From Nitrosomonas ureae (GTDB lineage Bacteria > Pseudomonadota > Gammaproteobacteria > Burkholderiales > Nitrosomonadaceae), in NCBI RefSeq assembly GCF_900206265.1, contig NZ_LT907782.1, positions 1,116,001 to 1,180,000 on the forward strand: a stretch of DNA of 64,000 nt, read 5' to 3'. Below the pieces are notes generated by a model. The model did no database searches, was not told the DNA's origin, and was given only the letters and a program-made list of their open reading frames with translations. A program made the translations under genes and the position numbers. Shown here piece after piece: positions 34,802 to 40,303 of this stretch (its first letter is position 1; each line of letters begins with the position of its first letter).

Positions 34802-37504
34802 GTGCAATCATCTAACCCAAATAATCTTCGATTCAATGGCGCAAGGGGACGTGCAGATTTGCTGCTCGCCCTTGCCATGGCCGGAGAAGATCGGGCAAGA
34901 CAAAACGCATTCGCTGCCGTACTGGGTTTTTTACCTACACCACTTCTCACTAAAGAAATCATCGATTCCACGACAAATATAATTGATGGCACAAATCCAG
35001 ATCTGATTCAACCTGTAACTACGGAGCAAATCCGGCACCAAATCAATTTTCGCCCTTATCATCTGACATCCATTGACGCAGTAACCTCAAAAGAAGCCTG
35101 GCAGCAACCCGAGCCAAATGAAACCAACGTGCTTGACCAGCAAGACATGAAAGCTTGGGATGCCAGCTATCAAACACCGCAAGCAATACCCATCGTCCCC
35201 TGGACACGTTTGTGGCCAAAACTGCGTCAAGCGGTGGCGAAATCGCGTTGCTCCACGTTGGATGTTTTACGCCTAACGCAACAACTTTCGCATGGTCGTG
35301 TGGTGTGTCGTTTCCCGCGCAAGCAGCGGCTCAGTTGGCCGAATCCGCTTCCTGTGATTCTGGATTTCTCCGATCGTCTAACACCGTATTGGCATGACTG
35401 GCATTGGCTACAGCAGCAATTGCATGATCAATTGCATCAAAATGTACATTGCTACCGCTTGCACGGTGTGCCACAAATGCCGGTGCAACGCATGTTGAAA
35501 AACCAGCCCCATACACAATTTACACCATGGCCGCACCTCACACCCGGCAGCACAATGTTGATTGTCAGCGATTTGGGAATGACCGATTCTGCGCACTCTT
35601 GGCCAATGACGTGCTGGCAATCAAAGCTTTCTGAACTGAAGCAACGTGGGATACACGTAATCGTCCTGGTACCTGCTTCGATTCAGCATTTGCGCTCACA
35701 ACTCACCAACCAGACTACATGCTTACGCTTAAGCCCGGATAGCTACCTTCGGCCTCTGCGTAGAAAAGCTGCACAAGACACGAATCAAATTGATTTCGAA
35801 ACCCGGTTATCCGCAGCTGCAGAAACGTTATTGACTATGATGTCAGTCGCAACACGCATAGAACCTGCTTTATTGCGTGAATTGCGCACCTTTCTGCCCA
35901 TTGGGAATCGCGATTCCGGCGTTGAGGGCGAAGTATGGTGTCATCCCGAGTTGGATACCGCCGCAACCGCCTGTGCCATTGCACCTTGGGCCGTACAACG
36001 CTGGCGCGGCAAATTCAGGCAATTGCCGGAAACACTACAGCAGCGTACGCTGGATTGCCTGCGCAACTGGCATGCACAACTTCCGCAGGCAATTCACCAT
36101 GAAGAAACATTATTGTGGCAACATTTAACAAAGCTAGAAATACTCCCGCAGGAAGCGGCGCATTCGAATAAAGCACGTGATTTCTTCAAAAAACTTACCA
36201 ATACGCTGCAAGCACCTGAGAAGCAAGGCACGCTTTCACACGCGCGCATGGTACAACTGGCCGACCGGCATGTACTCTGGGCAGCACCCGTGCTGAAGCA
36301 GAAGGAATCGTATATCACGAGACTTTCGGTCGCCGTCCATCGAGCCGAACCCGAGCGAAGCCATCAAGGCTTACCGGCAGGCATCGATCCTGCCGAATGG
36401 TTAAAAATGTCACACTCTCTTTCAACGCAGCGCATGCAACTCGTCCTCGATATCAACTCTGCACTAAGCCTGCTACCCGCAACTTCGCACTTACCAACAG
36501 GAATCGTCCGCCTAGCCACATTGGAAATTGATCGCGACACGCTGCTCTGGGCCAATCAGTACCATGAAAGGATATCAACGTACCGCCCCTGGCAATGGGA
36601 AACCTCTTCATCCAGCGAGCATCCAACGCCTCATTTACCTAACCCACTGGAAATAGCTGTAGAATCACAAGCGCTGCAATCATACCCTGCTTTAATTTTG
36701 CATACCGGACAAGAACGTTTACATTTTGAAGCTTTCAATCCACTCGCATGGGCATCAGCCTGGGGACAAGATGCATTCGGATTATTCGCTGAACTCACTA
36801 TTCGACGAATCACCCAACGCTTTCGTTGGATCACTCCCGGTACCTTCCTGATGGGTTCCCCGGAATCCGAACCGGAAAGAAATGATAACGAAGCACAGCA
36901 CGAAGTCAGGTTGACTGATGGTTTCTGGCTGGCCGACAGCGCCTGCACGCAAGCGCTATGGACAGCGGTCATGGAAGATAATCCCAGCCGTTTCCAGGAT
37001 GATCCGAATCTTCCGGTAGAAAATGTCAGTTGGTTCGATATACAAAAATTTATCGAAAAATTAAATACGCTGTTTCCGGATTTACATGCCCAGCTTCCAA
37101 CCGAGGCACAATGGGAATACGCCTGCCGTGCGGGTACCCGCACGGCATTTTCGTTTGGAGAAAGCATCACGCCCGGGCAAGTCAATTATGATGGCAATTA
37201 CCCTTATGCCGGAGGCGGGAAAGGCTTATACCGGGAAAGAACCGTTCCGGTCAAATCATTACCGCCGAATTCATGGGGATTGTATGAAATGCATGGCAAT
37301 GTATGGGAATGGTGCGCCGACTGGTATGAAAAATACCCTCAGCAAGCAGCGACCAATCCGCTTGGTCCTGACCAGGGTACAGTCCGCGTGCTGCGTGGCG
37401 GTTCCTGGCTCAACTTCGGCGGGAACGCGCGCTCCGCTGTCCGCGACTGGGACGAGCCTGATGATCGCTACGATAACATCGGGTTTCGTCTGGCCCCAGG
37501 TTGA
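34802..37504 (+). CDS. vWA-like protein with C-terminal FGE/C-type-lectin domain; DGR target 1
   Basis: A 900-residue protein from a GTG six bases after the ATPase stop. Residues 180-310 resemble a degenerate von Willebrand A domain: LPVILDFSDRL in place of DxSxS, and TMLIVSDLGMTD. The regions 1-170 and 310-660 are unassigned. Residues 673-900 are a formylglycine-generating-enzyme/sulfatase-modifying domain (RWITPGTFLMGSPESE, PTEAQWEYACRAG, LYEMHGNVWEWC). These adopt a C-type-lectin fold, the usual DGR target. The last 38 residues are encoded by variable repeat 1; in GSWLNFGGNARS and RDWDEPDDRYDNIGFR the changed residues match template AAC and similar codons. Likely a ligand-recognition subunit. 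Confidence 0.85.
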   Translation: MQSSNPNNLRFNGARGRADLLLALAMAGEDRARQNAFAAVLGFLPTPLLTKEIIDSTTNIIDGTNPDLIQPVTTEQIRHQINFRPYHLTSIDAVTSKEAWQQPEPNETNVLDQQDMKAWDASYQTPQAIPIVPWTRLWPKLRQAVAKSRCSTLDVLRLTQQLSHGRVVCRFPRKQRLSWPNPLPVILDFSDRLTPYWHDWHWLQQQLHDQLHQNVHCYRLHGVPQMPVQRMLKNQPHTQFTPWPHLTPGSTMLIVSDLGMTDSAHSWPMTCWQSKLSELKQRGIHVIVLVPASIQHLRSQLTNQTTCLRLSPDSYLRPLRRKAAQDTNQIDFETRLSAAAETLLTMMSVATRIEPALLRELRTFLPIGNRDSGVEGEVWCHPELDTAATACAIAPWAVQRWRGKFRQLPETLQQRTLDCLRNWHAQLPQAIHHEETLLWQHLTKLEILPQEAAHSNKARDFFKKLTNTLQAPEKQGTLSHARMVQLADRHVLWAAPVLKQKESYITRLSVAVHRAEPERSHQGLPAGIDPAEWLKMSHSLSTQRMQLVLDINSALSLLPATSHLPTGIVRLATLEIDRDTLLWANQYHERISTYRPWQWETSSSSEHPTPHLPNPLEIAVESQALQSYPALILHTGQERLHFEAFNPLAWASAWGQDAFGLFAELTIRRITQRFRWITPGTFLMGSPESEPERNDNEAQHEVRLTDGFWLADSACTQALWTAVMEDNPSRFQDDPNLPVENVSWFDIQKFIEKLNTLFPDLHAQLPTEAQWEYACRAGTRTAFSFGESITPGQVNYDGNYPYAGGGKGLYRERTVPVKSLPPNSWGLYEMHGNVWEWCADWYEKYPQQAATNPLGPDQGTVRVLRGGSWLNFGGNARSAVRDWDEPDDRYDNIGFRLAPG
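37385..37499 (+). repeat. DGR variable repeat 1 (VR1)
   Basis: 115 bases aligning without gaps to the template repeat at 39195-39309. I count 11 mismatches, at template positions 39219, 39220, 39225, 39226, 39231, 39237, 39255, 39258, 39261, 39273 and 39279. All are adenine in the template. No non-adenine position differs. The repeat ends at the stop region of the 900-residue protein; its last G-rich bases (TTTCGTCTGGCCCCAG) act as the presumed initiation-of-homology segment. Confidence 0.96.
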
Positions 37505-37516
37505 AAAAGCGGGCCA

Positions 37517-37534
37517 AGAGGCCGGCAGGCCTCT
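37517..37534 (+). promoter_or_regulatory. DGR target hairpin downstream of VR1
   Basis: AGAGGCC (37517-37523) and GGCCTCT (37528-37534) form a perfect 7-bp GC-rich stem with the four-base loop GGCA, 17 bases after the VR1 end. Hairpin/cruciform elements of this size and position are known to be needed for target recognition in characterised DGRs. The same element follows VR2 but not the template. Confidence 0.8.
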
Positions 37535-39309: not shown

Positions 39310-39487
39310 CTTGGATGAGTGCGGATGCCTCTTTCAACCAGATCGTCATCCAGTCCGCATGTACGGTGCGGCAAAAAGAAAATGCCCTCCGGTGCACGAG
39401 TAGTCCTATGCGGAGCCTTATGCGAAAGCCCACCGGAGAGGCGACTACAGCCTGGTCACTGATTTTGACTTTTATTCACTCGCTTGT
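39310..39487 (+). ncRNA. predicted structured 3' part of the DGR template RNA
   Basis: This stretch lies between the template and the second target gene and has no credible gene of its own. It contains an 8-bp perfect stem (CTCCGGTG at 39386-39393 with CACCGGAG at 39430-39437) around a 36-base arm, and a CCGCA...TGCGG stem near 39353-39370. In characterised DGRs the RNA beyond the template folds to bind the reverse transcriptase complex. The extent and fold here are inferred. Confidence 0.5.
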
Positions 39488-40303
39488 ATGCACACCTTTG
39501 TGAATTCAGAGAAAGCCGATTCTCTGCCATCAGCTTTCCCTTCTCCATGGGCCAGCGAATGGGGTCAGGATAGTTTTGGTTTATACATGGATCTGGATTA
39601 TCGAGGTATCCGCCAGCGCTTTCGTTGGATCACCCCCGGTACCTTTCTGATGGGTTCCCCGGAATCCGAAGCGGAAAGATATGATAACGAAACACAGCAT
39701 GAAGTCAGGTTGACTGATGGTTTCTGGCTGGCCGACAGCGCCTGCACGCAAGCGCTATGGACAGCGGTCATGGAAGATAATCCCAGCCGTTTCCAGGATG
39801 ATCCGAATCTTCCGGTAGAAAATGTCAGTTGGTTCGATATACAAAAATTTATCGAAAAATTAAATACGCTGTTTCCGGATTTACATGCCCAGCTTCCAAC
39901 CGAGGCACAATGGGAATACGCCTGCCGTGCGGGTACCCGCACGGCATTTTCGTTTGGAGAAAGCATCACGCCCGGGCAAGTCAATTATGATGGCAATTAC
40001 CCTTATGCCGGAGGCGGGAAAGGCTTATACCGGGAAAGAACCGTTCCGGTCAAATCATTACCGCCGAATTCATGGGGATTGTATGAAATGCATGGCAATG
40101 TATGGGAATGGTGCGCCGACTGGTATGAAAAATACCCTCAGCAAGCAGCGACCAATCCGCTTGGTCCTGACCAGGGTACAGTCCGCGTGCTGCGTGGCGG
40201 TTCCTGGTTCAACCTCGGCGGGTACACGCGCTCCGCTGTCCGCGACGGGTACGAGCCTGTTGATCGCAACGTTCTCATCGGGTTTCGTCTGGCCCCAGGT
40301 TGA
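39488..40303 (+). CDS. free-standing FGE/C-type-lectin-fold protein; DGR target 2
   Basis: A 271-residue protein comprising almost only the FGE-type domain (RWITPGTFLMGSPESE to IGFRLAPG). Its first 40 residues, SPWASEWGQDSFGLYMDLDY, match the linker preceding the same domain of the 900-residue protein (WASAWGQDAFGLFAEL). Residues 75-230 are identical to the corresponding part of that protein. The last 38 residues are encoded by variable repeat 2: GSWFNLGGYTRS and RDGYEPVDRNVLIGFR. No strong ribosome site precedes the ATG. It may be an alternative or soluble recognition domain for the system. The absence of a signal peptide implies a cytoplasmic protein. Confidence 0.85.
   Translation: MHTFVNSEKADSLPSAFPSPWASEWGQDSFGLYMDLDYRGIRQRFRWITPGTFLMGSPESEAERYDNETQHEVRLTDGFWLADSACTQALWTAVMEDNPSRFQDDPNLPVENVSWFDIQKFIEKLNTLFPDLHAQLPTEAQWEYACRAGTRTAFSFGESITPGQVNYDGNYPYAGGGKGLYRERTVPVKSLPPNSWGLYEMHGNVWEWCADWYEKYPQQAATNPLGPDQGTVRVLRGGSWFNLGGYTRSAVRDGYEPVDRNVLIGFRLAPG
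40184..40298 (+). repeat. DGR variable repeat 2 (VR2)
   Basis: 115 bases aligning to the template repeat (offset 989) with 14 mismatches, at template positions 39219, 39220, 39225, 39226, 39231, 39234, 39255, 39258, 39261, 39271, 39273, 39283, 39285 and 39286, all adenine in the template. No other position differs. Five substituted bases are shared with VR1; eleven positions distinguish the two variable repeats. Confidence 0.96.

What the first reader, a model, noticed from the sequence alone, without database searches (positions are those of the whole stretch)
37385..40298. Complete diversity-generating retroelement with adenine-only variation
Template 39195-39309 aligns without gaps to two variable repeats, at 37385-37499 and 40184-40298. 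I counted 11 and 14 mismatches; all 25 fall on template adenines (16 different adenines of 26) and none elsewhere in 115 bases. A DGR-type reverse transcriptase directly precedes the template and an HRDC accessory gene overlaps it. This is the defining signature of mutagenic retrohoming, and both targets end in the variable repeat.
Basis: partly seen in the sequence, partly recalled or inferred. Interest (0 to 1): 0.95.

Follow-up and report, generated by a model that had tools for sequence, protein, structure and literature searches.

The report
Retroelement rewriting two bacterial sensor genes
A bacterium, likely a Nitrosomonas, carries a gene cassette whose template differs from the ends of two genes only at the letter A, so it likely rewrites those genes by error-prone copying, and the two proteins are predicted to be variable sensors of a self-defence switch of an already described type.

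Summary
The 115-base template (39195-39309) differs from VR1 (37385-37499) at 11 sites and from VR2 (40184-40298) at 14; 25 of 25 are template adenines, at 16 of 26 A (P 3.5e-13). With an HRDC gene, an open reverse transcriptase gene and a GRNA-loop hairpin after each VR, this is a complete diversity-generating retroelement (DGR). Added here: the two target genes are identical over 483 bp before the VR and differ at 1 of 91 bp after it, but at 11 of 115 bp inside it, so the VR was likely rewritten after the copies became identical. The long target is the third gene of a likely operon (alpha/beta-hydrolase protein, MoxR ATPase, long target). Its N-terminus, which Pfam does not assign, is predicted to be a vWA domain; its C-terminus is closest to the DGR protein TvpA. 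In relatives the MoxR-long-target pair is constant, the upstream effector domain swaps (TIR, SEFIR and others), and the DGR cassette is present or absent. The layout matches the clade 5A conflict-system DGRs of Dore et al. 2024, who name Nitrosomonas. Verdict: real, a new member of a known kind; retrohoming and immune role are inferred.

The parts
31691..33766 (+). First gene of the likely operon, 691 aa, N-terminal alpha/beta hydrolase (candidate effector); C-terminal part shared with relatives whose N-terminus differs
   Evidence: Pfam Abhydrolase_6 31.0 bits, cut-off 26.3; C-terminal sharing by blastp
33773..34795 (+). MoxR-type AAA+ ATPase, 340 aa
   Evidence: Pfam AAA_5 49.3 bits and bpMoxR 35.2 bits, both above cut-off
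34802..37504 (+). Long DGR target, 900 aa: predicted vWA domain about residues 178-348, FGE/C-type-lectin domain 676-898 ending in VR1
   Evidence: Pfam FGE-sulfatase E 3.5e-48; AlphaFold2 models and VIA-align; D188 and D257 invariant in 23 of 23 aligned long targets
37385..37499 (+). VR1
   Evidence: 11 mismatches to TR, all at A
37517..37534 (+). Hairpin after VR1: 7-bp stem, loop GGCA
   Evidence: 53 of 3000 shuffles reach a 7-bp stem in 60 nt; DNA fold of 37500-37600 z -3.75
37668..38177 (+). HRDC-domain accessory protein, 169 aa
   Evidence: Pfam HRDC E 4.4e-15
38158..39177 (+). DGR reverse transcriptase, 339 aa, open frame, YMDD motif
   Evidence: motif read from the translation
39195..39309 (+). 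TR, template repeat
39488..40303 (+). Short DGR target, 271 aa, FGE/C-type-lectin domain, ending in VR2
   Evidence: Pfam FGE-sulfatase E 8.6e-47; TvpA chain 2y3c E 8.2e-23
40184..40298 (+). VR2
   Evidence: 14 mismatches to TR, all at A
40316..40333 (+). Hairpin after VR2, same stem and loop as after VR1
36902..37590 (+). Copy 1 of the homogenised block (0 mismatches in 483 bp before VR1, 1 in 91 bp after)
39701..40389 (+). Copy 2 of the homogenised block, offset 2799

Best explanation
This is a complete diversity-generating retroelement whose template and two target gene ends differ only at template adenines; it likely works by error-prone reverse transcription of the template RNA at its adenines followed by replacement of the target ends, which would give two predicted variable sensors for a predicted MoxR-type conflict operon. 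Shown by sequence: RT and HRDC genes, template, two adenine-only variable repeats, a 7-bp hairpin after each variable repeat and none of 6 bp or more after the template, and two target copies that are nearly identical outside the variable repeat. Predicted: the long target joins a vWA domain to a C-type-lectin binding domain. Inferred: at least one variable repeat was rewritten after the copies became identical; the vWA part docks on the MoxR ATPase next door; binding of an invader molecule by the variable end makes MoxR switch on the effector protein upstream (here an alpha/beta hydrolase), damaging or killing the cell; the short target is a second sensor, decoy or partner subunit.
Against: No variation was seen in living cells or reads. 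The ends of the homogenised block were drawn at its outermost mismatches, which flatters its identity. The vWA call rests on models of modest confidence (mean pLDDT 65.2 and 61.9); Pfam gives only VWA_CoxE at 17.9 bits, below its 26.4 cut-off, and nothing in five relatives; Foldseek's first rows for the single-domain model are SIS-type sugar isomerases; a PDB sequence search with the domain profile found no vWA. No VMAP domain was found in the 691-aa protein or, for VMAP-C, in the genome. bpMoxR is not specific: it rings above cut-off in 12 of 14 control genomes. Of 17 long-target places in the family 4 have an RT beside them, 10 do not, 3 end at the contig edge. Hairpins are not uniform in relatives: neither VR of L046 has one, and the TRs of L046 and L039 do. 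Column 880 is as variable as the VR codons but has no A in this template. Nothing here tests defence.
Confidence: 0.72

Rival explanations
1. A DGR whose variable proteins serve adhesion, cell-cell recognition or other binding rather than defence; the MoxR protein would be an assembly chaperone for them.
For: TvpA of Treponema, the best solved match, is a surface lipoprotein (recalled); MoxR-vWA pairs such as NorQ-NorD act in enzyme maturation (recalled; NorD match).
Against: The upstream gene carries TIR or SEFIR domains in 13 of 19 loci scanned, with weaker CHAT and trypsin-like hits in two others, domains known from conflict effectors (PMC10907252, section 13). I saw no signal peptide in the two targets by eye; no predictor was run.
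Confidence: 0.2
2. A dead DGR: the signature is a fossil and no retrohoming happens now.
For: Absence of the cassette is common around here: 10 of 17 long-target places in the family have no RT beside them, and three relatives keep only the first 26-29 codons of HRDC.
Against: RT and HRDC frames are open and the RT has its YMDD motif; the VRs differ at 11 sites while 574 flanking bases carry one change.
Confidence: 0.12
3. The A-only pattern comes from ordinary duplication plus selection or A-directed mutation, not from reverse transcription.
For: 25 of 26 template A lie at codon positions 1 and 2, where changes mostly alter the protein.
Against: Not one of 89 C, G or T of the template differs in either VR, while the two target copies do not differ at any base, A included, over 483 bp before the VR; an RT and an accessory gene sit beside the template.
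Confidence: 0.01

Closest known systems
Clade 5A DGRs of multicellular bacteria, type DGR 8 of Thiohalocapsa PB-PSB1 (Dore et al. 2024, PMC10907252; sections 6 and 13 and passages seen)
   Same: MoxR-like ATPase directly upstream of a long target; one long and one short lectin-only target; [quoted passage not shown] Nitrosomonas species named among organisms with multiple related DGRs.
   Different: [quoted passage not shown] here that part is predicted to be a vWA domain. The effector candidate here is an alpha/beta hydrolase. The word HRDC does not occur in the main text held. RT clade not tested here.
MoxR-vWA ternary conflict systems (Kaur et al. 2020, PMC7159879; passages seen)
   Same: MoxR plus vWA plus FGS (lectin) domain with DGR; exchangeable effector domains; alpha/beta hydrolase also mentioned there.
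   Different: No VMAP domain found here; vWA too divergent for Pfam.
Treponema denticola TvpA DGR (PMC4891356, passages; PDB 2y3c)
   Same: HRDC accessory gene overlapping the RT gene; FGE/C-type-lectin target; best structural match of the variable domain.
   Different: There the accessory gene lies between TR and RT; here TR follows the RT and one target carries a vWA-like part.
Bordetella phage BPP-1 DGR (PMC3240598, passages)
   Same: Adenine-specific TR to VR transfer; hairpin after VR with 7-10 bp stem and GRNA loop.
   Different: Avd (recalled for BPP-1) instead of HRDC; a phage tail target, not a chromosomal operon.

Membership tests
Diversity-generating retroelement | Template and variable repeats differing only or almost only at template adenines | tested here: met
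   25 of 25
Diversity-generating retroelement | DGR-type reverse transcriptase, open frame, beside TR | tested here: met
   adenine-only repeats beside four RT relatives. Placement in a reference DGR tree not done
Diversity-generating retroelement | Accessory gene (Avd or HRDC) | tested here: met
   HRDC E 4.4e-15
Diversity-generating retroelement | Target with C-type-lectin type fold, VR at its 3' end | tested here: met
Diversity-generating retroelement | Hairpin/cruciform shortly after VR | tested here: met
   after both VRs, none of 6 bp or more after TR; 53 of 3000 shuffles reach the stem length
Diversity-generating retroelement | RT-dependent new variants | not testable with these tools
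   no reads or cultures; indirect sign
MoxR-vWA ternary conflict system (VMAP type) | MoxR ATPase | tested here: met
   bpMoxR 35.2 bits, cut-off 27; the model also rings in 12 of 14 control genomes
MoxR-vWA ternary conflict system (VMAP type) | vWA domain protein next to MoxR | tested here: inconclusive
   [not shown]
MoxR-vWA ternary conflict system (VMAP type) | VMAP domain protein | tested here: not met
   no VMAP model in the 691-aa protein at E up to 10; VMAP-C not found in the own genome at E up to 10. Profile level only; it is not filed as a VMAP system
Clade 5A DGR of Dore et al. | MoxR directly upstream of a long target, plus a short lectin-only target | tested here: met
Clade 5A DGR of Dore et al. 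| RT falls in clade 5A | not tested
   their sequences were not at hand

The most novel reading that the evidence does not exclude
A bacterial anticipatory immune receptor: a lectin domain randomised by a retroelement is mounted on a vWA arm that a MoxR motor reads out, and the motor fires an interchangeable killer protein; the two receptors are kept on one identical scaffold and differ only in the randomised binding site, so one cell tests two specificities at once. The 'extensions without predicted domains' of the clade 5A DGRs would then be vWA domains, making that clade true MoxR-vWA systems.
Probability: 0.35. Interest if true: 0.78.

Novelty: new member of a known kind. Interest (0 to 1): 0.5.

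Why it matters
DGR-coupled conflict systems are good candidates for bacterial receptors diversified in advance of infection, but the best studied host, Thiohalocapsa PB-PSB1, remains uncultivated (PMC10907252, passage). This one lies in a one-contig genome of a likely Nitrosomonas, where the RT search found one match, and its two targets are identical over 483 bp before the variable repeat, so new differences should be easy to read. The predicted vWA domain would close the gap between clade 5A loci and the MoxR-vWA systems and gives a direct binding test (long target with MoxR).

Tried and rejected
Rejected: ordinary duplication with point mutation. Rejected: a phage or prophage setting; the neighbours look like housekeeping genes (named from memory, except an iron alcohol dehydrogenase by Pfam), and PHROGs hits in the operon are a family labelled kinase on the two FGE domains, RT and polymerase families on the RT, and ATPase or porphyrin families on the MoxR protein. 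Rejected: remote targets in the own genome (three places only). Rejected: the two TRs of relative G054 serving its long target L095; no match at 68% or better there.

Led nowhere: Rfam scan of the window (no match); fold of the TR region as RNA (z -0.62); promoter and terminator scan (5 promoters against a shuffle mean of 12.5, 11 terminators against 10.7); PDB sequence search with the vWA-region profile (11 weak rows, beta-lactamases and a capsid protein); PADLOC (the 691-aa protein matches DUF626_VIII at 34 bits, the RT matches 73 families, best a general RT model, the HRDC protein matches DpdF, the MoxR protein has six weak rows; the two targets match none). First genome-contig scan with a two-row alignment found no relative. 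My TR/VR script found no pair in L036, L037, L038, L040, L042 (one pair only), L044, L048 and L049 at its first settings; L036 and L044 gave pairs when the TR was named by hand, L037 and L038 end before a TR.

Dropped rows: the 23 long targets aligned leave out L050, L052, L060 and L061 (cut or in broken frames) and L051, L053, L092 (the same records as L089, L090, L058). Upstream genes not scanned: L095, and L094, where the gene before MoxR points the other way; L037, L057, L090, L093 and L099 are cut by contig edges.

Papers: searches. In one search two held papers contain both 'Nitrosomonas' and the DGR phrase; I saw sections and passages of one (PMC10907252), the other as a listing. No supplements were seen. 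I claim no priority in print for the vWA prediction beyond what searches show.
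Full report
Observation. All 25 mismatches (11 and 14) fall on template adenines, at 16 of 26. The chance for 16 distinct columns is 3.5e-13. A search of the 3.06 Mb genome found these three copies only.

Organism. The window's genome is in the same genus as genomes G056 and G041; their contigs have the lengths (57331 and 85864) of the named Nitrosomonas records behind L051 and L058. I infer a Nitrosomonas-type ammonia oxidiser.

Anatomy. Six genes read in one direction: a 691-aa protein with an N-terminal alpha/beta hydrolase, a MoxR-type ATPase, the 900-aa long target, the HRDC protein, the reverse transcriptase and, after TR, the 271-aa short target. 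The first three are 6 bases apart, so they are likely one operon. The long target may start 19 codons later than listed, as in P0001. After both VRs, 17 nt on, stands a hairpin of 7 bp with loop GGCA; none of 6 bp or more was found in 130 nt after TR. In 60 nt, 53 of 3000 shuffles reach a 7-bp stem. The published pattern for phage DGRs is a 7-10 bp GC-rich stem, a GRNA loop and 4-34 bp distance (PMC3240598, passages), which this fits. In relatives the picture is mixed: neither VR of L046 has such a hairpin and the TRs of L046 and L039 do.

A clock inside the genome. The two target genes share a block that is identical for 483 bp before the VR and carries one mismatch in 91 bp after it, while the VRs differ at 11 of 115 sites, each a template A. 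Upstream of the block identity falls off within about 150 bp. The block ends were set at the outermost mismatches. The paired targets here align at 96.3% over 812 columns, VR included; in the ten other loci compared the aligned pieces were 67-88% identical. The simplest reading is that gene conversion or duplication made the copies equal, VR included, and that retrohoming then rewrote at least one VR while the rest had time for one change. This is inference from one genome.

The operon in relatives. A scan of named genomes gave 12 loci, in Nitrosomonas, Methylobacter, Methylomonas, Zoogloea, Thiodictyon and others. In the family, 17 places in 15 of 125 genomes carry the N-terminal domain. In 23 of 23 long targets aligned, a MoxR gene lies directly upstream, in three of them cut by a contig edge. 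The gene before MoxR was scanned in 19 loci: 13 have TIR or SEFIR above cut-off (one of them also a metallophosphatase domain), one has PNP_UDP, the window an alpha/beta hydrolase; CHAT (L055) and trypsin-like (L098) hits lie below cut-off; two have no hit (L051, L103). The window's protein shares its C-terminal 400 residues with L051 (46%) and L054 (29%): L051 lacks the hydrolase part and L054 has SEFIR instead; L050 is 44% alike over 562 residues and adds a TIR domain. A constant core with exchangeable effectors is what is described for conflict systems (PMC7159879, passages).

The cassette moves separately. Of the 17 family places, 4 have RT beside them, 10 do not and 3 end at a contig edge. 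The window's RT is closest to two Zoogloea copies (58% and 56% over 339 residues) and to a 114-residue fragment in its own genus (L102, 61%); three full-length RTs in the genus are 47-48% and one is 35%. Yet the N-terminal domains of those three closest loci are only 23-28% like the window's, while Nitrosomonas, Methylobacter and Methylococcaceae loci reach 45-50%; of these, L051 and L052 have two targets and no RT between them, L050 and L053 end too early to tell. Unnamed proteins reach 74-80%, context unknown. Three relatives keep the first 26-29 codons of the HRDC gene without an RT beside it, which suggests loss.

More distant RT loci of the genus also show the signature, less cleanly: from 21 of 21 mismatches at A (L047) to 21 of 33 (L042) and 18 of 44 (one target of L036).

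Comparison with what is known. Dore et al. [quoted passage not shown] This locus has that layout. It is therefore a new member of a known kind. What is added: a predicted vWA identity for the extension, an alpha/beta-hydrolase version of the effector, the separate histories of cassette and operon, and a homogenised target pair that dates the rewriting. A VMAP domain was not found, so I do not file it as a VMAP ternary system; the bpMoxR match is not specific (12 of 14 control genomes).

Limits. Retrohoming, binding of MoxR to the vWA part, effector activation and defence are inferred. No population data were available here.

Noticed in passing
One short FGE gene matches TR with 14 of 14 mismatches at A (5986), the other only at 60% (44 mismatches, 18 at A), as if it had drifted out of range.
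   Followed up: partly
L051 12440-12526, L056 10238-10315, L059 5553-5639: HRDC gene cut off after 26-29 codons, between two FGE targets, with no RT beside it: likely scars of DGR loss. In L051 a REP-associated-type transposase gene (named from memory) lies there and the short target is split into two overlapping frames.
   Followed up: partly
L094, L100, L101: MoxR plus long-target loci without RT that carry three short FGE genes each, on both sides of the operon.
   Followed up: no
L057 1253-5809: A 1518-aa long target with three FGE domains in tandem in a Thiotrichales MAG; no RT match in the fetched stretch.
   Followed up: no
window 37124-37147 and 39923-39946: A perfect 24-bp palindrome inside both target genes, in the shared block; may only reflect codons.
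   Followed up: no
L039, L041-L047: Further DGRs of the genus with more distant RTs and mostly adenine mismatches; 5 of these 8 (L039, L042, L044, L046, L047) have a MoxR-like match about 3-4 kb before the first FGE domain.
   Followed up: partly
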